Source: Lewinellaceae bacterium
Lineage (GTDB): Bacteria; Bacteroidota; Bacteroidia; Chitinophagales; Saprospiraceae
Length of the DNA stretch: 35,664 nucleotides
Assembly: GCA_947476195.1 (NCBI GenBank)
Contig: CANJPT010000041.1
Coordinates: 1-35,664, forward strand
Reading direction: 5' to 3'
Shown: positions 1,218 to 34,003 of the stretch, in pieces
How positions within the stretch are numbered: the stretch's first letter is position 1
Layout: each line of letters begins with the position of its first letter
Made by a program: the position numbers and the translations under genes
The notes under the pieces: model-generated
Seen by the model: the letters and a program-made list of their open reading frames with translations, nothing else
What the model was told of the DNA's origin: nothing
Databases searched by the model: none

Positions 1218-1724
1218 ATGACGCTCCGCGAATTATTTGACTATCTCAGCGCCAATCCGCTTGTGGTAGCTGCCTATTTTTCACTCCTTTTGTTCACGGC
1301 TATTCTGGCCGGGTTAATGGGCAAAGGAGAAGGCCACCTAAGCCCCTGGAAATACCTGTATGCTACCATCGTGTATCTGGTCTGCGTACCTGGCATTTTT
1401 GCGGCTGCATTGGCGGTCTACCTTTTTCTTTTTGAGCAGGGCGGGAGTATTTTTAATGTTAATTTGCTCACCCAAGTATTGCCAGTGGCAGCAATGCTGA
1501 TAACCTTAAACGTTATTCGGCGTAATGTTGAGTTTGGGTATATTCCAGGATTTGGACGACTCACAGATCTGATTATGACCATCTTTACGATGTTTTTATT
1601 AATGTATCTGCTCAACCGATTGCACCTAATAGCCTGGGTATATGTGCCGGTACAATGGCTTATCCTGATCGTCGTGGGTTTCTTGCTCGTGGTGCGTTTT
1701 GGCCTTAAACGCTTGACCTCGTGA
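1218..1724 (+). CDS. Small integral membrane protein, four helices
   Basis: I do not recognise a named family. The 168 residues contain about four to five hydrophobic segments (roughly 15-34, 48-70, 84-100, 118-135 and 140-162), so it is an inner-membrane protein without a cleaved signal. Short charged loops (GKGEGHLSPWKY, NVIRRNVEFGY) separate them. Its stop overlaps the GTG start of lptC in GTGA, which suggests translational coupling and a shared message with lptC and the CBS/CorC gene. A role in the envelope is a guess from this context only. The hairpin at 1138-1200 separates it from sodA, and no promoter could be seen in the 17 bases between, so the operon promoter is either inside the hairpin region or is that of sodA. 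Confidence 0.85.
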   Translation: MTLRELFDYLSANPLVVAAYFSLLLFTAILAGLMGKGEGHLSPWKYLYATIVYLVCVPGIFAAALAVYLFLFEQGGSIFNVNLLTQVLPVAAMLITLNVIRRNVEFGYIPGFGRLTDLIMTIFTMFLLMYLLNRLHLIAWVYVPVQWLILIVVGFLLVVRFGLKRLTS

Positions 1725-7033: not shown

Positions 7034-7089
7034 AGGAGATAGAAGAAATGTGCCAACCAAAGGTTCAGCACGCATTGGTTTTTTTACAG

Positions 7090-7128
7090 GGTCAAAAAGG
7101 GTGTTTTTTGCCCTTTTTGACCTTTTTT
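7090..7128 (+). terminator. Strong rho-independent terminator
   Basis: GGTCAAAAAGGG (7090-7101) pairs perfectly with CCCTTTTTGACC (7111-7122), followed by a T-run. It closes the gene ending at 7033. Confidence 0.85.
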
Positions 7129-7323: not shown

Positions 7324-8787
7324 CTATTTCTTTTTTCCTGCCCTGGCCGCACGGGCTTTTTCCATTACTTCAGCACGGGAAAGTTTCGGTGCGTTTGGAT
7401 CCTTTTTAGGCTTAGCTGGTTCGCCTTTGGCAGCACGGTTCGCTGCTGCTGCTGCACGGGCTTTTTCCATCACTTCAGCACGGGAAAGTTTTGGCATATT
7501 GGCCTTAGCTAATTTTTCTGCTGCGACCTCTTCGGCACTACGACGTACCCGTGTAGATTTTTCTGGCTCAATTTTTTTAGGTGCGTTAGCCGCTTTGGCA
7601 GCACGGTTCGCTGCTGCTGCCGCACGTGCTTTTTCCATCACTTCTGCACGAGATAGCTTCGGTTCAGCGGCTTTGGCTGCTTTGGCTGCGGCCACCGCAG
7701 GATTTGGCTTACGGCCTGGTTTGCCTTTTTCAGCAGCAATCTTAGGTATGGCAGCTGACGAACGATCAGATTTTAATTTCGCTGATACAGCCTTTTTCTC
7801 CGTAGCAGCAGCTTTAGCTTGTTCCTTCATTTCTGCACGAGCTAATTTCGATGCTGCGACTTTAGCAGCTTTGGCGACTTTAGCAGCAGCTATTTCAGGA
7901 TTTGGTTTGCGGCCTGGTTTGCCTTTTTCTGTTTTAGCAGCAGCCTCGGCTTTGGCAGTAGCTAAAGCCGGATTTGGCTTACGACCCCGTTTGGCGGGTA
8001 CAAGTTCTGCAGCTATAGCGGCAGGTTTTATGCCAGGCTTGCGGCCGCGCTTTTTAGGAGCATCTGATATAGAGGCTGTTTTTTCAGCTGGTTTGGATGC
8101 TTTTTCAGCAGCGCGGCGAGCTTGTTGTGCCGCCTTTATTTTACCCTTGTGATCTTCGCTCATCACCCGTTTCGGGGTGGTCGGTGTTTCTGAAGCTTTA
8201 TCGATCGACTTAACTGCTTTTGCCGCCTTCGTCTTTGTAGCTTCGGCTACTTTCTCTATGTTTCCTTCAGCCACCATTGTGAGGTGTGCGAGATGATGCT
8301 TGCAATGCCATGCATAAAGTGCAATGGCTTCGCGTAGCGTAACCGTGCGCTTATTGGCAGGGTGGTAATAACCGAGGTCAAGGTCATCCTCAGAAAGCGA
8401 CATGAGGAAATTTACCCAGCGTACGTGGAGCGCAGATAGAAGTTTGAGCGAAGTTTTAGGCGAGCCATATTTCGCATCATCCGTTTCGGCCCATAGGGTT
8501 TCTTCGTAAGGCTTGATGATTGGGGCTGTTTCAGTAGCGGCAAGTTTGAAGCGGATATAGGCGTTCATATTGCTATCCGCAAGGTGGTTAATCACTTGGC
8601 GGGCAGTCCAACCTCCTGCGCGATAAGACCTTTCAAGCGCACCGTCCCGGAGTTTTTTAATTACTTTTTTTAGGTCTTTCGGCAAACGGGCAATCGTCTT
8701 TATGTGCTTTCGGGTATCTTCAATGGAATAGCTTTTGCCGTATTCAAATTTCCCAATAGGGAAACGGCGATCGGTAATTTCTTTCAT
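7324..8787 (-). CDS. DinB/YfiT-like domain fused to an AT-hook, histone-H1-like tail
   Basis: Residues 1-175 look like a DinB/YfiT-type four-helix metal-binding domain. The conserved surroundings are GGWTARQVINHLADS with His68, and LYAWHCKHHLAHL with His161 and His165, the three usual metal ligands. This N-terminal part resembles bacillithiol-transferase/YfiT proteins. Residues 180-487 are a Lys/Ala/Pro-rich tail: four AT-hook-like cores (RGRKP at 247-251 and 267-271, PGRKP at 291-295 and 357-361) and three copies of PKLSRAEVMEKARA (about 376, 432 and 467) plus a weaker copy at 314. Such tails bind AT-rich DNA or compact nucleoids. The normal domain is about 170 residues and stands alone; the fusion is unusual. 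The reading frame is open throughout and ends in a proper terminator. The AlkA-like gene lies 96 bases upstream on the same strand. A DNA-located role is inference. Confidence 0.85.
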   Translation of the reverse strand: MKEITDRRFPIGKFEYGKSYSIEDTRKHIKTIARLPKDLKKVIKKLRDGALERSYRAGGWTARQVINHLADSNMNAYIRFKLAATETAPIIKPYEETLWAETDDAKYGSPKTSLKLLSALHVRWVNFLMSLSEDDLDLGYYHPANKRTVTLREAIALYAWHCKHHLAHLTMVAEGNIEKVAEATKTKAAKAVKSIDKASETPTTPKRVMSEDHKGKIKAAQQARRAAEKASKPAEKTASISDAPKKRGRKPGIKPAAIAAELVPAKRGRKPNPALATAKAEAAAKTEKGKPGRKPNPEIAAAKVAKAAKVAASKLARAEMKEQAKAAATEKKAVSAKLKSDRSSAAIPKIAAEKGKPGRKPNPAVAAAKAAKAAEPKLSRAEVMEKARAAAAANRAAKAANAPKKIEPEKSTRVRRSAEEVAAEKLAKANMPKLSRAEVMEKARAAAAANRAAKGEPAKPKKDPNAPKLSRAEVMEKARAARAGKKK

Positions 8788-8883
8788 AAAGTTTAAAATT
8801 GTGTTGTGCTGCTGATTTATCGATAAAGCAATAATAACTATTAAAAGTCAATAATTATTGCCAAAAAAATTGAATTGTTTAAT

Positions 8884-9492
8884 TCAACGATCTTTCCAAC
8901 GCCAAAGATATTGACAGGCAATGGTACGCCACGGTTTCCAAGGCTCTGACAGTTCAGTCATTCTTATCTTTAATAAGCGCGGATTTAGTTCTTCTATTGT
9001 AAAAAGCCGTTGCATGGCTTGTTGGATTCCGAGGTCATCTACCGGGAAAATATCGGGCCTGGACAGCGTAAACATTAACAGCATTTGTACAGTCCATTTT
9101 CCTACGCCTTTTATTTGGGTTAGGAAGCTTATAATTTCTTCGTCTCGCATAGAATCCCAATCAATATTTTGCAAATCATTGTCTATGTCGAATTTTGCTA
9201 CATTTTGAAGATATTCAGCTTTTTGACCAGACAGCCCAACGCTTCGCAATGTATCAGATTCAATAGCCACAACATAACGGGGGTGCGGATAGTTGTCTGG
9301 GAATAGAGAAATGAATCGTTTAAAAATTACATCTGCTACTTTAACACTCAACTGTTGAGATACAATCGACGATAATAAATCGTAGTAAACCCTGCCAGAA
9401 GGAATCAATTCTGGCACTTCTATTGCAGTTAATAATGGTCGTATTGTTGCCTCTTTATTTAAATGTGCTATCGCAGCTTCCGAATTCATCAT
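8884..9492 (-). CDS. DNA-3-methyladenine glycosylase II-like (AlkA, HhH-GPD) protein
   Basis: It removes alkylated bases from DNA, opening base-excision repair. The helix-hairpin-helix is LTQIKGVGKWTVQMLLMF (124-141). The catalytic aspartate is in FPVDDLGIQQ, most likely Asp153 by analogy with AlkA Asp238. The C-terminal motif PWKPWRTIACQYLW matches AlkA's WKPWRSYALLHIW closely. At 202 residues it lacks the AlkA N-terminal extra domain, like the short forms in yeast and many bacteria. The start could be either of two adjacent ATGs at 9492 or 9489. It lies upstream of, and on the same strand as, the DinB/AT-hook fusion; co-transcription is possible but no promoter was recognised for either. 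Confidence 0.92.
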   Translation of the reverse strand: MMNSEAAIAHLNKEATIRPLLTAIEVPELIPSGRVYYDLLSSIVSQQLSVKVADVIFKRFISLFPDNYPHPRYVVAIESDTLRSVGLSGQKAEYLQNVAKFDIDNDLQNIDWDSMRDEEIISFLTQIKGVGKWTVQMLLMFTLSRPDIFPVDDLGIQQAMQRLFTIEELNPRLLKIRMTELSEPWKPWRTIACQYLWRWKDR

Positions 9493-12181: not shown

Positions 12182-13264
12182 TCAATCGTATTTGTCCAAC
12201 AAATCGAGGTGTCTGTTGACAGCGAGGAGATATCGCAAGCCTTTCCAGAATGGCCAATAAGGGTGTCCGTGTGCATTGTTGTAACTACTCACCTCGTAGA
12301 GTAATTTCCAATGGCGAAGTATTTCCGCATAGGCCTGCCAAAGCCTCATGCCACAATGGTAAATATGGCTGGGCGAGGCACCAGCTCCGTTGTATTCCAG
12401 AATAGCAAAATTCTTTCCTTGTTTGAGGTCTGCGATTGAGGTACACTTGACATCATATCGCCCCCAGAAAAAGGCGCCGCTATGCAAACTAATCGTATCG
12501 AAAAATGCGGCCAATTCGGCATCTGCCTCATGCGATAGGTTGCGCAGACGTGCGCCCCGACTGCGATTGATTGCAAAAGAAAGGACGTAGCGTTCGCGGT
12601 CTGCAGGCACCCAATCGAGTTTTCCTTCGTGTTTGCGGCACATTTCTTCGGCACGTTTGCCGGCCTGAGGATGCTTAACAATGAGTTCCCGAAGGGTAGT
12701 CGTTCCGTCGCCCCATACTTCCAATGCCTCTCGGAGAATGATACCCGTGATCTGGCCTGTTTGTTTGGCTGGGTGTCGGACGTAGAAAACGCCCAACTCC
12801 ATAGGTGCATCTATCAGGTCTTGTACCACGTAATCCATCGGACAATACAGATGGTATTCGAGTAGTTGTGCTTCGGAATCAATTTTTCTAAAAAGCAGGC
12901 CTTTTCGCCCTACATCAGGCTTTACGATGAAGGGATATTGAAATCCTGCGTCGGAAACCCGTTTTTTTACGGCTTCAAAATCTTCGGGTGGCTTGACCAG
13001 AATGGTTCGTGGATAGACACCCTCCGGCATTTGCTTGTACACGTCGGTTTTGGTTTCTCCCTCGTATCCACCAAATGGAATGGTAGGGTTGGAAGGTGTG
13101 AAAAACCAAAAAGAACCTGCTCTCAATGAATACCAGGCCCAAATCGGGGCAAGCGGAGCATAAAGCACCGCTGAAGGCCAAAGCTCCCAATTGGTAAGTT
13201 TTTCAAAAAAGCTTGGTTTTTGATTAGGGGCAGGCAATTGAGATGCTGATTGTTGTTCCTCCAT
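12182..13264 (-). CDS. ATP-grasp ligase-like protein
   Basis: An ATP-dependent carboxylate-amine ligase fold. Visible ATP-grasp parts (numbering from the chosen start): FIVKPDVGRKG with Lys115, the VVQDLIDAPMELGVFYVR strand with Glu156, GRYDVK with metal ligand Asp271, and LEYNGAGASPSH with Glu290 and Asn292. The N-terminal 70 residues contain Trp-rich hydrophobic stretches (LWPSAVLYAPLAPIWAWYSL), which could contact the membrane. I know no assigned substrate for this type; D-Ala-D-Ala ligase is only a distant relative. The ATG at 13264 is preferred because the promoter's -7 box covers the in-frame TTG at 13291. It heads the cluster with the LysE exporter, racemase and pseudouridine synthase genes. 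Confidence 0.85.
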   Translation of the reverse strand: MEEQQSASQLPAPNQKPSFFEKLTNWELWPSAVLYAPLAPIWAWYSLRAGSFWFFTPSNPTIPFGGYEGETKTDVYKQMPEGVYPRTILVKPPEDFEAVKKRVSDAGFQYPFIVKPDVGRKGLLFRKIDSEAQLLEYHLYCPMDYVVQDLIDAPMELGVFYVRHPAKQTGQITGIILREALEVWGDGTTTLRELIVKHPQAGKRAEEMCRKHEGKLDWVPADRERYVLSFAINRSRGARLRNLSHEADAELAAFFDTISLHSGAFFWGRYDVKCTSIADLKQGKNFAILEYNGAGASPSHIYHCGMRLWQAYAEILRHWKLLYEVSSYNNAHGHPYWPFWKGLRYLLAVNRHLDLLDKYD

Positions 13265-13288
13265 TTTGCGTTGTCTAAAAAAAGTGGG

Positions 13289-13296
13289 CAAAAGTA
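13289..13296 (-). promoter_or_regulatory. -7 box of the ATP-grasp operon
   Basis: TACTTTTG on the minus strand, a perfect TAnnTTTG, with TGTTT 17 nt upstream. Transcription would start at about 13283, 20 bases before the ATG at 13264. This rules out the in-frame TTG at 13291 as start codon. Confidence 0.55.
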
Positions 13297-20184: not shown

Positions 20185-20766
20185 ATGACACGCGCTCTTT
20201 TTTTGCTGATGTCCGGACTTTGTTGTCTCCTGATGTTCGGGAATTTTCAATGTGAACAACACTACTGTTCACTCGAGTTTGAACTCCGGAACTGGCATTC
20301 TGTCTGGCTCAACAACAGTGGGATTGAACCGATTACTTCCTCTGATCCAATACCGCGTTCGGCACTGGGTATTCGCCTCTCTGCAGCATTTTTAAATCCG
20401 GACAGTCTTTCTGTTTCCGAAAACGAAGCATGTTCCTGGCAGGCATTTCATCCCATCAGCCAACTTGAAATATTTGCTACAAATGGTTTTGACACGATAG
20501 CAAACGGAGATAATATCAGCAGCCGATTCCGACTAAGGGCGCTCAACGCTTATTCGTTTCAATACCTCACCTTGGAACAGGCTTTAGGGCCAGTAAACTT
20601 TTTTTACGCACCGGTTACTCCTGATTACGAGATCGATCTGGTAATGATAGAACCACCAAGTCAGTCTGGCGCCTACCAATTTTCGGTCAAGATCACGTAC
20701 GACAGTCTCTCCATGCCACCCAGTCCCGACACCTTTTTCACGCTCCCCACCGTTATATTGCAATGA
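20185..20766 (+). CDS. Exported hypothetical protein
   Basis: The N-terminus (MTRALFLLMSGLCCLLMFGN) is a signal peptide, perhaps a lipoprotein one, as Cys23 follows (FGNFQCEQ), though the box is not canonical. The mature part of about 170 residues is rich in Ser, Pro and aromatic residues with beta-strand spacing and includes the run ISQLEIFATNGFDTIANGDN. The pattern recalls Bacteroidota DUF5034-type proteins, which commonly occur as signal-bearing small proteins, but I cannot confirm it. Its stop overlaps the start of the barrel gene in ATGA, so the two are translated together and the products may work together at the outer membrane. Confidence 0.75.
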   Translation: MTRALFLLMSGLCCLLMFGNFQCEQHYCSLEFELRNWHSVWLNNSGIEPITSSDPIPRSALGIRLSAAFLNPDSLSVSENEACSWQAFHPISQLEIFATNGFDTIANGDNISSRFRLRALNAYSFQYLTLEQALGPVNFFYAPVTPDYEIDLVMIEPPSQSGAYQFSVKITYDSLSMPPSPDTFFTLPTVILQ

Positions 20767-21548
20767 AGATCACTTGGATCGCCTTCATGGCTGCAATGGC
20801 CATCACACCTGTTCTTATTGCGCAAAAAGACAGCGTCGCTACACATCCAACCTGGGCAGCAGGGATGTATGGAAGTATTTCAGTCGGTTATGGCCTTTTC
20901 TCTGACCCCTTCAGGAATGTGTCGGTGATGGGCGCCTCCTTGCCTGCAACCGGGTTGATTTATAGCATGGATGCCGGGATTGCTTTTCGAAATAAGTTTG
21001 GGCTACGTGCGGTCATAGGGCGTATTGCTGCCAGGAATATCAGACCGAATATCAAACGCGCACTGGAGGCAGCGAATCCGGGCTATGTTGCAACTTTCCT
21101 TTCTGCATCCGGGGTGAATAACAAGCTATCAAAGCATTATGCCATTGGTTTGTCCTATGCGATCCCTCGTAACCAATGGTGTTTTCAGCCGGAATTGCTG
21201 CTTGGTTCTACGACAGTTTCTCTTGAAACCACCTTTGTACAGCTCAAAGAATTGGGTACCCATCGGGCCTGCTTTTATAAAGTAAAATCTGATTTTCAGC
21301 ATTACAAAAGCCACACCTTAACGTTCGGTGGCAGAGCAGCCTGGTATGTTGGGCAGTACTGGGGTGTATTTGCAGATGCCTGGTTTTTAACGATTTGGAA
21401 CAATTTTCAGTATCAGGTTGAAAAAACTGATTTGTTGGAGCAAACCATGGATACGGAAAACGTTCAGATAAAAAACAGGGAGTTCGGCGCGACGGGAAAG
21501 CTGGGGATATTTCTTCAGATCGCGCGTTGGGAGGGGAATGGTTATTAG
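20763..21548 (+). CDS. Outer-membrane beta-barrel protein
   Basis: Starts with a signal peptide (MKITWIAFMAAMAITPVLIA, cleaved near AQ-KD). The rest has alternating hydrophobic/polar strands with Gly and aromatic residues: GMYGSISVGYGLFSD, SMDAGIAFRNKFGLRAVIGR, HYAIGLSYAIPRNQW and GGRAAWYVGQYWGVFADAWF, about eight strands in 261 residues. This fits a small barrel of the PorT/OmpW-like kind. Its start overlaps the stop of the preceding gene (ATGA). It is followed by a perfect hairpin at 21581-21638 and the convergent M49 gene. The function is unknown. Confidence 0.75.
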   Translation: MKITWIAFMAAMAITPVLIAQKDSVATHPTWAAGMYGSISVGYGLFSDPFRNVSVMGASLPATGLIYSMDAGIAFRNKFGLRAVIGRIAARNIRPNIKRALEAANPGYVATFLSASGVNNKLSKHYAIGLSYAIPRNQWCFQPELLLGSTTVSLETTFVQLKELGTHRACFYKVKSDFQHYKSHTLTFGGRAAWYVGQYWGVFADAWFLTIWNNFQYQVEKTDLLEQTMDTENVQIKNREFGATGKLGIFLQIARWEGNGY

Positions 21549-23970: not shown

Positions 23971-24858
23971 CTATCGCCCTGTCTTGACGACTTTTCCTGC
24001 TTTTGCCCTGCCTGTATTGCCCATGACATCCCAGAAGTATAACCCTGGCGGTAAAGCACCCGTGTCAATATCCGTGATGTCAAAGGCCAGATACTTTTCG
24101 CAGACGAGCCTGCCCATTTGGTCGTAAAGCCGAAACATCCCACCGCCCAGTTGCGGGTTACTGATGGTCAAGCGTTCCTGAAATGGGTTGGGTGAGATCA
24201 TTATCTGACTTTGCAGCATTGGATTGCAGGTTGTCGAAACTCCCAATTGCACCACCTGACAAAAAGTGTCTGCACTATACAGGTTGTTCACCACTAAACT
24301 AACATGGTAAGTTCCTTCTGAGGGGAAATTGTGCACTGGGCTGGTGTCTTGACTCACGTTGCCATCTCCAAAGGCCCAGTGCCACTGGGCAGGTTCATAG
24401 GACGACAAATCAGTAAAGGTCACTTCCAGCGGCGCGAGCGTGTCCTCCTATTCCCAGCGCCAGTTGCAGAGCGGATGGTTTTCGAAGCCGAGGGTACAGC
24501 AAGCCGAGCCGTCGAGCGGGCCGAGGTGGTAGTTGGGGTGGTTGGGGATAGAGTTGTCGTTATAGCTAGGCAGTAGGATGGCTCTTTGGTGTACCTGACA
24601 AGCAACACCTTTGCGATCAGGGTATTCGATGACATGGAGGAAGGGCGTACTGAATGCAGTACAGATGTATATTTTTCCATCCGGGCCAAGTTGAGCGACA
24701 CCGAAGGTGGTAGCAAAACTTACCTCGTATACATACCCATCCCATTCTGCCACAAGGGTTTTGGAGGCGGCAATGTCGGTGGCTTGGAGGTCGTATTGGA
24801 AGACGTAACTGGCATTGAGGGCATACAGGAAGCGAGAATTAGGTGGGATCGCGGGATT
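23971..24858 (-). pseudogene. 3' end of a beta-propeller - PKD - T9SS sorting-domain protein, with a nonsense codon
   Basis: From about 24858 downward one frame reads: a propeller-like end (NPAIPPNSRFLYALN, YVFQYDLQATDI, GPDGKIYI, HVIEYPDRKG, SYNDNSIPNHPNYHLGPLDG), then NHPLCNWRWE, a TAG stop (24450-24448), and straight on in the same frame EDTLAPLEVTFTDLS, a PKD domain (WHWAFGDGNVSQDTSP), and a type A T9SS C-terminal domain (ISPNPFQERLTISNP ... GLYFWDVMGNTGRAKAGKVV). The TAG is a single in-frame nonsense codon. The first part of the propeller is missing: the frame has no start or signal peptide and fuses out of frame with the protease remnant at about 24855-24865. Intact relatives would be secreted and surface-attached. 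Confidence 0.8.
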
Positions 24859-24860
24859 TC

Positions 24861-26426
24861 GTTGGCCAATACCAAGTGCGAGAGCGAGGGGAAATCTACA
24901 TTTGGTACATGACTTAACCCGGGAGGCAGTATTCCAGTGACCAAGAATTCCGGACTGGAGAAAGTATTTGGCAAACATGCGATATTATTGCACACTTCGA
25001 TTTCGAAAGTCACCACTTCGATCAAGCAAGGGGTTGATTGTTCGACTGAGGTGTTTACCTCTAAGGTTTCCAGAAGTTCGTTGGAGAGATCAACTTTGAC
25101 GTCGTCGGCAAACCAGAATGTCTCTAACCAACCAGGAAAAGTTCCATTCAATTTGCCACTTAAACACATAAAATTCCAGCAAACATCTGAGGTGTTTTGA
25201 AAAGGCAGGGTGTAAGTTTTGTATATTGGGTTCGTCGCTTCACTGGAGACAATAGATTCAAGAAATGTAGGACTATCAATGCCCGGGTTCGTGTAAATAT
25301 TTACATTGCTAATTGGGCTATTTTCTGTCAATTCTATCTTGATTTGTGGGTTGTACCCTGCTATAATGCAAGTGTTAGAAATCATTGCCTGCATGGTCAC
25401 TTGGCCTCTCATCCCGGGAAAAATGGGTTCACACAATGGAAACATTAGACCCTCAGATTTAGATATATTTTCTTGAAGCGAAGTATACAAGCGTATCCTT
25501 TTACAGCCATTGCCAGACTCAATATAAGTATTTCCACAACCAGCCTTATTGAAATTTGTTGGTGTAACTACAATTTTCACTTCAGTTGCATCGCATCGCC
25601 TTCCATCACATGTAGTAATGGTGTAGCAAAAGGTATAAACGCCTTGGGCAAGTCCGGTTATATTGAAAACGTTTCCTACGGGAAGTGGAATAAAAAGTCC
25701 ACTGTGACTTCCGCAATCTGGTTTGTAGGTAAGGGTTGCATTAGTTGGGAAGTCATTGGAGAGGAGCGTACTGAAGTCAAGTTGGATAGTCTGGTTTAGT
25801 TCTACAAAAAAATTGCCACCTTTCGAGGCGATGACCAAACAATCTGGATCACATTCGTCAGTTTTGTAACCCAGTTTACATAAAATAGATATTTCAGTTG
25901 GGGTCAAAATGCGCTGTACACCGTCCGTGCCATTGGGTATACTGGCATGCATGATATAATGATCTGTTCCGCAGGTCCGATCTAAATGGCTGAGTACTTG
26001 ATTGAATTTAGCGGGGTCTTGCGTGGGGTACTCGCTGTTCACGGGTGGGAGTTGGGCCACATCGAATTGTACATTGTTCGGACCACAATCTTGATCCCAA
26101 ATGATGTCGGGCATGCCAGGGAAATCTTCCACATTGAATTTGTAATCTGCACAGCAAAATCCACTGCCGCCCAGCGTCGAAAGAATCAAATAGTCGCCGG
26201 TAGGGTTTCGGAGGTTTAAGTCCCAAGGTGTGTAGAAGTTCGTGATTGGGTTTCCGAGGGGGAATGAAATTCGAGATGCGAAGCCCATGGTGTGAAGGGC
26301 TTCGTGCAAGATGGCTGTGTAGTAGTCAATCTCATTTAGGCCAATGTTCCCAGCAGGGCCGATGTAAAAATTTGTGATGTCAGTGTTTACTCGATAAAAG
26401 CATTTGGAAGTAGTGGCTACAAACAC
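24861..26426 (-). pseudogene. 5'-truncated secreted zinc metalloprotease remnant (leishmanolysin-like)
   Basis: The open frame begins without ATG (a GTG at 26426) and without signal peptide, right inside the catalytic domain: ILHEALHTMGF has the zinc motif HExxHxxG (His41, Glu42, His45). Position 11 of the motif is Ser, so a later His must be the third ligand, as in leishmanolysin (M8) proteins; LSHLD (His147) followed by the Met turn YIMHASI (Met159) fits. Beyond residue 200 come beta-sandwich and carbohydrate-module-like regions (CYTITTCDGRRCDATEVKIVV; WNFMCLSGKLNGTFPGWLETFWF) and a DUF11-like strand set. Sense ends near residue 522 (ANEIP), where the frame runs out of phase into the propeller remnant. 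Signal peptide and N-terminal part are absent, and the gene abuts the LpxD-like stop, so the start was lost by deletion. Confidence 0.75.
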
Positions 26427-33139: not shown

Positions 33140-34003
33140 ATGTCAATAATTCGTATTTTCGCGGTCCTTCTTTTTCCCTTGGTTGCAGCGGCACAGTGCC
33201 CGCTCGATGGCTATATGAAAGGAAAGGGCGTGCTTGACCTGGCTCCATCGATCTCCTTCAATTCGGCCCGGAAATTTGAGGGGGCCAATGGAAAAATCTA
33301 CGATGAGGTCTATAAAGGCCAGATGTTCAGCCTGTTTGCGGAATACGGACTGACCGAAAAATTTGATCTGGTCGCGGTCGCAGCTGCAGTGTTCACGCCC
33401 ATACAAAGTGGATTGCAGGATGGCGGGCTATTTGCAAAATATCGCCCTGTTCAGGTCAAACTCGGTAAAGCTGGAAAACTCGGGGTGATCTTTGGAACCG
33501 GCGCAAGCTTTCCAATTGGAAACTACGAACCAACCGCTACCGGTGCCCTGGGACAAAATGCATTCACCGTACCGGCAAGGGTAATACTACAATGGGAAAG
33601 TCCCCTTGGGTTATTCCTTAATCTGACCGGGGGCTATCATTTCAGGATCGACGACTTGAAGGAAGCGGATATCGCTCTTGTTAGAAAGAAAAGACCTGAA
33701 TATGAACCGATTGAACCACAAGACTTTACCACTTTTTTAGTAAAGGTCGGTTTCCCTGCAAAACACTTTTATCTGGACGGCTGGGCAGAATGGCAGCACA
33801 CCAACGGTGGCGCGGATTATGTTCAGAATGTGCCGGATCTGCCGCAGGCTTACGGGATTTCCTATACTCAGGTGGGCGGCACCGCTTTTTACACCGACAA
33901 TGGGCGAAATGGATGCTACCTCAGTGGCGGATACATCCTCGGCGGTCGGAATACCAGCAGAATTCAACGGATCACGATCGGGATGGTATTTAAGATGGAG
34001 TGA
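33140..34003 (+). CDS. Outer-membrane beta-barrel (transporter-like) protein
   Basis: Signal peptide MSIIRIFAVLLFPLVAAAQ. The mature part of about 268 residues has regular beta strands with terminal aromatics: LAPSISFNSARKF, SLFAEYGLTEKFDLVAVAAAVFTP, GKLGVIFGTGASFPIG, ARVILQWESPLGLFLNLTGGYHF, FTTFLVKVGFPAKHFYLDGWAEWQ, and a closing strand ending in KME. This pattern fits a 10-12-stranded barrel as in Bacteroidota transporter-like proteins, with no plug domain. No partner gene is adjacent. The stop codon lies in the left arm of the hairpin at 34002-34094. I do not know the substrate. Confidence 0.75.
   Translation: MSIIRIFAVLLFPLVAAAQCPLDGYMKGKGVLDLAPSISFNSARKFEGANGKIYDEVYKGQMFSLFAEYGLTEKFDLVAVAAAVFTPIQSGLQDGGLFAKYRPVQVKLGKAGKLGVIFGTGASFPIGNYEPTATGALGQNAFTVPARVILQWESPLGLFLNLTGGYHFRIDDLKEADIALVRKKRPEYEPIEPQDFTTFLVKVGFPAKHFYLDGWAEWQHTNGGADYVQNVPDLPQAYGISYTQVGGTAFYTDNGRNGCYLSGGYILGGRNTSRIQRITIGMVFKME

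What the first reader, a model, noticed from the sequence alone, without database searches (positions are those of the whole stretch)
7324..8787. DinB/YfiT-like metal-binding domain fused to an AT-hook / histone-H1-like tail
Directly seen: residues 1-175 carry the three-His pattern (His68, His161, His165) of DinB/YfiT proteins; residues 180-487 carry four RGRKP/PGRKP cores and three to four copies of a PKLSRAEVMEKARA repeat in a Lys/Ala-rich tail. Stand-alone DinB-fold proteins are known as thiol-dependent or metal-dependent enzymes, and H1-like tails as nucleoid-binding; a single protein with both would be an enzyme held on AT-rich DNA. Inference: a chromatin-located detoxifying or damage-response enzyme. 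The next gene upstream on the strand is an AlkA-type alkylation-repair glycosylase, which makes a DNA-alkylation theme plausible. I know of no described protein of this layout.
Basis: partly seen in the sequence, partly recalled or inferred. Interest (0 to 1): 0.8.

Follow-up and report, generated by a model that had tools for sequence, protein, structure and literature searches.

The report
Detox enzyme with DNA-binding-like tail
A probable thiol-dependent detoxifying enzyme in one bacterial genus carries a long, repetitive, positively charged tail that may hold it on DNA, and its gene usually sits next to a DNA-alkylation repair gene; no DNA binding has been measured.

Summary
ORF 7324-8787 (-) encodes 487 aa. 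Residues 8-173 are a complete YfiT/BstA-type bacillithiol transferase domain (NF009807, 207 bits, cut-off 160; PDB 1rxq, 1.3 A, TM 0.92) with His68/161/165 on YfiT His67/160/164. Residues ~175-487 are a basic Ala/Lys/Pro repeat tail.

It is not a one-off. Of 42 genus genomes, 35 have the domain: 34 with a tail in the same frame, one cut at a contig end. Two more show only tail at contig ends; five show neither. The 32 tailed domains put in a tree form one group (SH-aLRT 99). Relatives read outside the genus lack such a tail, apart from short Lys-rich tails in one other family.

An AlkA-type glycosylase gene lies directly upstream in 24 of 34 informative loci, but in 0 of 45 genomes of other genera for which both places were printed.

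'AT-hook' is too strong: no Pfam AT_hook match, no canonical GRP core in the window protein, no core at all in 9 of 32 tails. What is kept is a basic repeat tail under purifying selection.

Best reading: a bacillithiol transferase tethered to nucleic acid, probably nucleoid DNA, by an H1-like tail; a new variant of a known enzyme. DNA binding is inferred, not shown.

The parts
7324..8787 (-). Fusion gene: YfiT/BstA-type bacillithiol transferase domain plus basic repeat tail, 487 aa
   Evidence: ORF; domain and tail in one frame in 34 of 42 genus genomes (for the tails; for the census)
8269..8766 (-). Catalytic domain, residues 8-173 (DinB_2 fold, NF009807); metal-site His68, His161, His165
7327..8265 (-). 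Basic Ala/Lys/Pro tail, residues 175-487; net charge +49 over the last 314 residues
   Evidence: no Pfam family; no second place in the genome
7975..8046 (-). Two RGRKP cores (GRKP at residues 248-251 and 268-271)
   Evidence: positions; shuffle test; pLDDT mostly under 50 there
7705..7914 (-). Stretch with two PGRKP cores (GRKP at residues 292-295 and 358-361) and the degenerate repeat SKLARAEMKEQAKA (313-326)
   Evidence: positions
7348..7662 (-). Three exact copies of PKLSRAEVMEKARA (residues 376-389, 432-445, 467-480)
   Evidence: positions; helices 380-400, 436-453, 471-485 in the model
8884..9492 (-). AlkA-type DNA-3-methyladenine glycosylase (HhH-GPD), 96 bp upstream on the same strand; frequent neighbour in the genus
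   Evidence: adjacency in 24 of 34 informative loci

Best explanation
It is a metal-dependent bacillithiol S-transferase (BstA/YfiT type) that has gained a histone-H1-like, lysine/alanine-rich repeat tail. Shown by computation: the intact enzyme domain, the fusion in one frame across a genus, one group in the domain tree, a basic tail under purifying selection, the AlkA-type gene as frequent neighbour, and the bacillithiol-synthesis gene bshC in the genus. Inferred: the domain is active; the tail binds nucleic acid electrostatically, most likely nucleoid DNA, helped by RGRKP/RGPKP/RGRP-type hooks where present; the enzyme then conjugates bacillithiol to electrophiles close to DNA before they alkylate bases, while the neighbouring glycosylase removes lesions that still form.
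For: Domain: NF009807 over its curated cut-off; 1rxq TM 0.92, 1.3 A, 44% identity; H68, H161, H165 invariant in 51 sequences; domain pN/pS 0.04-0.14 in 11 orthologue pairs that I chose. Host chemistry: BshC (PF10079) over cut-off in 38 of 42 genus genomes, the window's included. Tail: positive net charge in all 30 genes (+10 to +90), in G391 and G414 (+69, +63) and in G419 and G423 (+62, +72); whole-tail pN/pS 0.17-0.58 in the same 11 pairs; RAE repeat units inside genes 0.16 at columns not fixed by my search pattern. The 32 tailed domains form one group, SH-aLRT 99. Tail search in its own genome finds only this gene. AlkA-type gene adjacent, same strand, in 24 of 34 informative loci, against 0 of 55 non-genus loci and 0 of 45 other-genus genomes. 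Precedents: ClbS inactivates a DNA-alkylating cyclopropane and binds DNA (PMC9854587 passages; 7mtl); gp94 (PMC11242194 passages).
Against: No binding or activity data. No AT_hook or histone profile matches. The canonical GRP core is in only 7 of 32 tails and not in the window's. One relative's tail hits Pfam RBR, 'RNA binding region' (L014, E 1.6e-5, 26.0 bits, cut-off 24), which points to RNA as much as DNA. The AlkA-type gene is not adjacent in 10 of 34 informative loci. Five of 42 genus genomes show neither domain nor tail, among them G395, rated 99% complete. Tail selection is weaker than domain selection. The ClbS match of the model is weak (E 0.46-0.60, about 15% identity). Natural substrates of YfiT/BstA enzymes are unknown (PMC10950700 passages), and a B. 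subtilis strain lacking all eight grew normally under stresses that hurt bacillithiol-less strains (PMC5815605 abstract).
Confidence: 0.55

Rival explanations
1. The tail binds RNA or ribosomes (or another polyanion), not chromosomal DNA: the enzyme is an RNA- or ribosome-associated thiol transferase.
For: Basic, disordered tails bind RNA as readily as DNA (general knowledge). Pfam RBR 'RNA binding region' matches the RGPKP tail of L014 over its cut-off. Only 7 of 32 tails hold a canonical GRP core.
Against: The frequent neighbour is a DNA glycosylase, not an RNA gene. 23 of 32 tails hold an AT-hook-like core. RBR appears in 1 of the 8 tailed proteins scanned with Pfam.
Confidence: 0.2
2. It is mainly an architectural nucleoid protein: the YfiT-type domain is a dimer core that makes the tails bivalent and bridges DNA; catalysis is secondary or lost.
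For: YfiT forms a dimer (PMC10950700 passages), so two tails per dimer are plausible. Tails are long (up to 447 aa) and very basic (+90 in G022). In phage gp94 a DinB-like domain without the metal residues is joined to a DNA-coating domain (PMC11242194 passages).
Against: The metal triad is invariant and the domain is under stronger purifying selection than the tail, which a mere dimer core would not need. Abundance and oligomeric state are unknown.
Confidence: 0.12
3. The tail is a near-neutral low-complexity expansion with no specific partner; the protein is an ordinary cytosolic bacillithiol transferase.
For: Tail length (130-447 aa among the tails not cut) and repeat type vary widely and look like products of tandem duplication. 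Tail selection is weaker than domain selection.
Against: A tail is present in all 34 genus genes that can be read past the domain. Net charge is positive in all 34. Whole-tail pN/pS 0.17-0.58 in 11 pairs.
Confidence: 0.1

Closest known systems
YfiT/BstA bacillithiol S-transferase (Bacillus subtilis YfiT, PDB 1rxq; S-transferase-like, formerly DinB/YfiT, superfamily)
   Same: Whole catalytic domain, 44% identity, TM 0.92, same three metal histidines; NF009807 over cut-off.
   Different: The eight B. subtilis enzymes are single-domain (PMC5815605 passages); this one has a ~310-residue basic repeat tail and often a glycosylase neighbour.
ClbS, colibactin self-resistance protein (PDB 7mtl, with dsDNA)
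   Same: DinB-type fold (TM on the target 0.57-0.67, but E 0.46-0.60); inactivates a DNA-alkylating electrophile and binds DNA (PMC9854587 passages).
   Different: About 15% identity; a cyclopropane hydrolase; its complex with DNA is of the small single protein (162-168 residues in 7mtl), without a long tail.
Mycobacteriophage Alexphander gp94
   Same: N-terminal DinB/YfiT-like fold joined to a C-terminal DNA-binding part that forms high-order complexes on dsDNA (PMC11242194 passages).
   Different: The C-terminus is a predicted MerR-type HTH; gp94 lacks the canonical metal-binding residues; a phage protein.
Mycothiol transferases with a second domain
   Same: DinB thiol-transfer domain plus another part; PMC5815605 (passages) suggests that the second domain sets the non-thiol substrate.
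   Different: There the second part is a Pfam domain; here it is a low-complexity basic tail with no Pfam match.
AT-hook-like and H1-like bacterial nucleoid proteins (Lsr2, H-NS, HupB type)
   Same: Basic Ala/Lys-rich tails or RGR-type cores.
   Different: There the motif belongs to a nucleoid protein; here it is on an enzyme. Lsr2/H-NS: search listing and start of abstract only (PMC4466236); HupB is recalled.

Membership tests
YfiT/BstA bacillithiol transferase (NF009807) | Score above the curated equivalog cut-off | tested here: met
   207.3 bits against 160
YfiT/BstA bacillithiol transferase (NF009807) | Three conserved metal-site histidines | tested here: met
   H68, H161, H165 align without gaps to 1rxq; invariant in 51 rows
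YfiT/BstA bacillithiol transferase (NF009807) | DinB-type four-helix fold | tested here: met
   domain blocks pLDDT 91-98 from residue 11 to 170; Foldseek 1rxq E 6e-16
YfiT/BstA bacillithiol transferase (NF009807) | Host makes bacillithiol | tested here: inconclusive
   BshC found in 38 of 42 genus genomes including the window's; BshA and BshB not searched; thiol not measured
YfiT/BstA bacillithiol transferase (NF009807) | Metal-dependent transfer of bacillithiol to electrophiles | not testable with these tools
   needs an enzyme assay
AT-hook proteins (PF02178) | Match to the AT_hook profile | tested here: not met
   no match in the window protein, its genome (E up to 10) or 7 relatives; HMMER filters can lose 13-position motifs
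AT-hook proteins (PF02178) | Canonical GRP core with basic flank (definition recalled) | tested here: not met
   0 in the window tail (its four cores are GRKP); GRP present in 7 of 32 tails
AT-hook proteins (PF02178) | Binding in the minor groove of AT-rich DNA | not testable with these tools
   needs a binding assay
Histone H1-like (Hc1-type) nucleoid proteins | Profile match | tested here: not met
   tail alone: 0 Pfam families at E up to 10
Histone H1-like (Hc1-type) nucleoid proteins | Basic, Lys/Ala-rich, disordered or helical repeats | tested here: met
   window tail 26% K+R, 28% A, charge +49; disordered and helical stretches
AlkA-type 3-methyladenine glycosylase (neighbour gene) | HhH-GPD domain and similarity to solved 3-methyladenine glycosylases | tested here: met
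   E 9.4e-16; 3s6i E 1.8e-28
AlkA-type 3-methyladenine glycosylase (neighbour gene) | Score above the NF007641 (DNA-3-methyladenine glycosylase 2) equivalog cut-off | tested here: not met
   40.7 bits against 229; hence 'AlkA-type' only

The most novel reading that the evidence does not exclude
A chromosome-tethered detoxifying enzyme in bacteria: a bacillithiol transferase held on the nucleoid by a fast-evolving repeat tail so that bacillithiol conjugation happens next to DNA, acting as a pre-damage shield in one locus with an AlkA-type glycosylase that repairs the damage that gets through. Its hooks and basic helices would place it in the groove where N3-alkyladenine, a typical AlkA substrate (recalled), forms.
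Probability: 0.4. Interest if true: 0.75.

Novelty: new variant of a known kind. Interest (0 to 1): 0.55.

Why it matters
Thiol transferases of this kind are usually thought of as soluble detoxifiers, and the natural substrates of YfiT/BstA enzymes are unknown (PMC10950700 and PMC5815605, passages). An enzyme of this group with a nucleic-acid-type tail and a base-excision-repair neighbour gives a concrete place (DNA) and a concrete class of threat (alkylating electrophiles) to test. If true it shows that bacteria can position detoxification on the chromosome. The tails are also a natural series of repeat variants (hook-rich, helix-rich, mixed) on one constant domain, useful for asking what a bacterial H1-like tail needs in order to bind DNA.

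Tried and rejected
One-off or assembly artefact: rejected; 34 of 42 genus genomes have domain and tail in one frame.

Fusions elsewhere in the phylum: of the frames that searches printed (both lists are cut), I fetched the seven longest outside the genus (G456, G664, G450, G514, G487, G645, G532) and the longest (G309). In all 8 the extra length lies upstream of the domain and 5-16 residues follow it, so they are not fusions of this kind. Matches that were not printed, and genomes not drawn, are not covered.

AT-hook family membership: tested and not met. Tail as a module shared with other genes: (own genome) found only this gene. One search (12 genus genomes, one relative's tail as query) found one weak match elsewhere (G011 C3, E 0.017), but in 3 of the 12 (G008, G012, G380) that query did not find even this gene's own tail, so other tail types could be missed.

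AlkA linkage as an ancient feature of YfiT-type genes: not supported; 0 of 55 non-genus loci (flanks up to 3 kb, shorter where the contig ends) and 0 of 45 other-genus genomes (nearest pair 10 kb apart). One search used only printed places: 122 of 240 other-genus domain genomes and 131 other-genus glycosylase places (list cut).

A conserved operator between the two genes: the palindrome after the glycosylase stop is not seen in five close relatives. Literature on a DinB domain with AT-hook, lysine-rich tail or nucleoid, or on bacillithiol in Saprospiraceae: no such fusion in the listings; two searches listed 0 papers.

Caveats on counts. The unit pN/pS values pool dependent pairs inside genes, and the first version was biased by my own search pattern, so I use the free-column version. 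The 11 orthologue pairs were chosen by me as near relatives. G391 and G414 failed a pattern and are missing, but are; G419, G420 and G423 came last and are in none of these. Two short single-domain loci (L087, L089) were left out of the tree, a quick search with SH-aLRT only. Nine of the 32 tails are cut: eight at contig ends and G418 by the stretch that I held, so their lengths and core counts are lower bounds.

Full report
What is there. The minus-strand ORF 7324-8787 encodes 487 residues. Residues 8-173 match NCBIfam NF009807, 'YfiT family bacillithiol transferase', at 207 bits against a curated cut-off of 160, Pfam DinB_2 at E 4.5e-20, and the crystal structure of B. subtilis YfiT, 1rxq, without gaps at E 5.1e-49. 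The predicted structure of the domain has ten-residue means of 91-98 pLDDT from residue 11 to 170 and matches 1rxq at 1.3 A, TM 0.92 on the target, 44% identity. His68, His161 and His165 fall on YfiT His67, His160 and His164, the conserved histidines reported in PMC5815605 (passages), and are invariant in an alignment of 51 sequences.

The tail. Residues from about 175 on are a Lys/Ala/Pro-rich tail with net charge +49 over 314 residues. It holds four GRKP cores; 2000 shuffles of the same residues give 0.08 AT-hook-like cores on average and never four. It also holds three exact copies and one degenerate copy of PKLSRAEVMEKARA. In the model the section with the first two cores is mostly under pLDDT 50 and the exact repeats are helices (ten-residue means up to 89). 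Pfam finds nothing in the tail alone at E up to 10, and the AT_hook model finds nothing in the window's genome. Searched with this tail, that genome shows only this gene. In 12 genus genomes searched with one relative's tail, one weak match (G011 C3, E 0.017) lies away from this gene; but in 3 of the 12 the query missed this gene's own tail, so the search does not exclude other tail types.

Distribution. The genus is represented by 42 genomes; its census was pieced together. The domain is in 35. In 34 a tail follows in the same open frame (read); in G420 the domain is cut by a contig end and a tail piece lies at another contig's end. In two (G013, G417) only tail is seen, at contig ends. In five (G014, G015, G395, G421, G422) neither is seen; G395 is rated 99% complete, so true loss is possible. 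No genus genome shows a second close copy without a tail; distant DinB-superfamily paralogues at 23-29% identity do occur. Outside the genus: of the 60 named loci, five carry tails (L031-L035, whose contig lengths equal those of genus members G023, G412, G399, G002 and G019). In 54 of the other 55 the frame ends 0-11 residues after the domain; in L080 it runs on for 197 residues that are not basic (7% K, 6% A). In a 398-genome family sample 268 have the domain; 28 of the 31 genus members listed have frames of 306-645 aa, while the 122 other-genus frames printed are 171-290 aa. In a 395-genome phylum sample 161 have the domain. The eight longest outside frames that I fetched are upstream read-through. 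In one other family (12 of 16 genomes with the domain) 5 of 12 end in short Lys-rich tails of 24-40 residues. In a maximum-likelihood tree of 99 domains the 32 tailed ones form one group, SH-aLRT 99.

What is conserved in the tail. Among 32 tails, 23 hold an AT-hook-like core (GRP, GRKP/GRRP or RGPKP), 18 hold the RAE helix repeat, none lacks both, and only 7 hold the canonical GRP, not including the window's. Nine of these tails are cut, so the counts are lower bounds. Net charge is positive in all 34 (30, two, two). Repeat type and number differ between lineages, as expected of tandem duplication, while the chemistry stays. Selection is visible: in 11 orthologue pairs that I chose, whole-tail pN/pS is 0.17-0.58 against 0.04-0.14 for the domain, and between RAE repeats inside genes the ratio is 0.16 at columns not fixed by my search pattern. 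The tail is constrained, less tightly than the enzyme.

The neighbour. The gene upstream on the same strand (8884-9492, 96 bases between) is an HhH-GPD glycosylase most like solved 3-methyladenine glycosylases; it is far below the NF007641 equivalog cut-off, so I call it AlkA-type. It lies directly upstream, same strand, with a gap of 60-916 bp coordinates, in 24 of 34 informative loci: 21, plus G419, G420 and G423 from the places. In 10 it is not there within about 1.0-1.5 kb (G002, G003, G004, G008, G011, G012, G019, G024, G399, G410). G403 is cut by its contig end. In G008 and G012 a close glycosylase (59%, 61% identity) lies elsewhere. Outside the genus the pairing was not found: 0 of 55 loci and 0 of 45 genomes for which both places were printed, the closest pair 10 kb apart. 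So the association is a feature of the tailed lineage, common there but not obligatory.

Chemistry. BshC, the last enzyme of bacillithiol synthesis (recalled), is over its cut-off in 38 of 42 genus genomes including the window's, so the domain probably has its co-substrate. YfiT/BstA enzymes conjugate bacillithiol to electrophiles in a metal-dependent way, and their natural substrates are unknown (PMC5815605 and PMC10950700, passages). A B. subtilis strain without all eight grew normally under stresses that hurt bacillithiol-less strains (PMC5815605 abstract), a warning against assuming a strong phenotype.

How it most likely works. Shown: intact enzyme domain, one group of fusions, constrained basic tail, frequent glycosylase neighbour. 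Inferred: the tail holds the enzyme on nucleic acid, probably the nucleoid, so that bacillithiol conjugation occurs next to DNA, with the glycosylase removing lesions that still form. Two precedents make this reasonable. ClbS, a DinB-fold enzyme that inactivates a DNA-alkylating cyclopropane, binds DNA (PMC9854587 passages; 7mtl is a weak match of the model, TM on target 0.57-0.67, E 0.46-0.60). Phage Alexphander gp94 joins a DinB/YfiT-like fold to a part that coats dsDNA (PMC11242194 passages), but lacks the metal residues. Against: one relative's tail hits an RNA-binding profile (L014), no profile for a DNA-binding tail matches, and no experiment exists.

Novelty. By every feature tested the domain belongs to a known family; the architecture is a new variant. 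Searches of the held papers listed no such fusion; only open-licence papers are held. PMC10693628 was read in passages only: two DinB-superfamily genes in mycobacteria are induced by genotoxic stress, which fits the theme but is no evidence for this protein.

Noticed in passing
L127, L128, L129, L131, L132 (after the domain): In another family of the same order, 5 of 12 YfiT-type proteins end in short Lys-rich tails of 24-40 residues (charge +6 to +12); their domains lie outside the window genus's group, so basic tails may have arisen twice.
   Followed up: partly
L014 protein, best stretch residues 244-265: The RGPKP-repeat tail of this relative matches Pfam PF17208 RBR ('RNA binding region') just over its cut-off, E 1.6e-5, three stretches.
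   Followed up: no
L080, 2913-4077: In this Desulfosporosinus MAG the YfiT-type frame runs on without a stop for 197 residues that look like an acetyltransferase by eye; L075 and L078 of the same genus stop 8-9 residues after the domain.
   Followed up: no
L156, upstream of the fusion gene (G009): The long gap to the glycosylase holds a simple repeat that reads QSNQSN in the frame upstream of the start; G007 (L159) has a shorter one.
   Followed up: no
window 8870-8887: Palindrome TTGAATTGTTTAATTCAA (6-base arms, 6-base loop) overlapping the glycosylase stop codon; not seen in five close relatives.
   Followed up: partly
window 7089-7122: Inverted repeat (GGTCAAAAAGGG / CCCTTTTTGACC) between the convergent fusion gene and the saccharopine-dehydrogenase-like gene, probably a terminator.
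   Followed up: no
window 1218-1724 (+), 12182-13291 (-), 20185-20766 (+), 20763-21548 (+), 24448-24978 (-), 24720-26426 (-), 33140-34003 (+): ORFs without any Pfam match at E 1e-5; not all need be genes.
   Followed up: no
tail repeats across the genus: Genes often end at contig ends inside the tail (8 of 32, also G013, G417 and G420), so the tandem repeats seem to break assemblies and the fusion may be under-annotated.
   Followed up: partly
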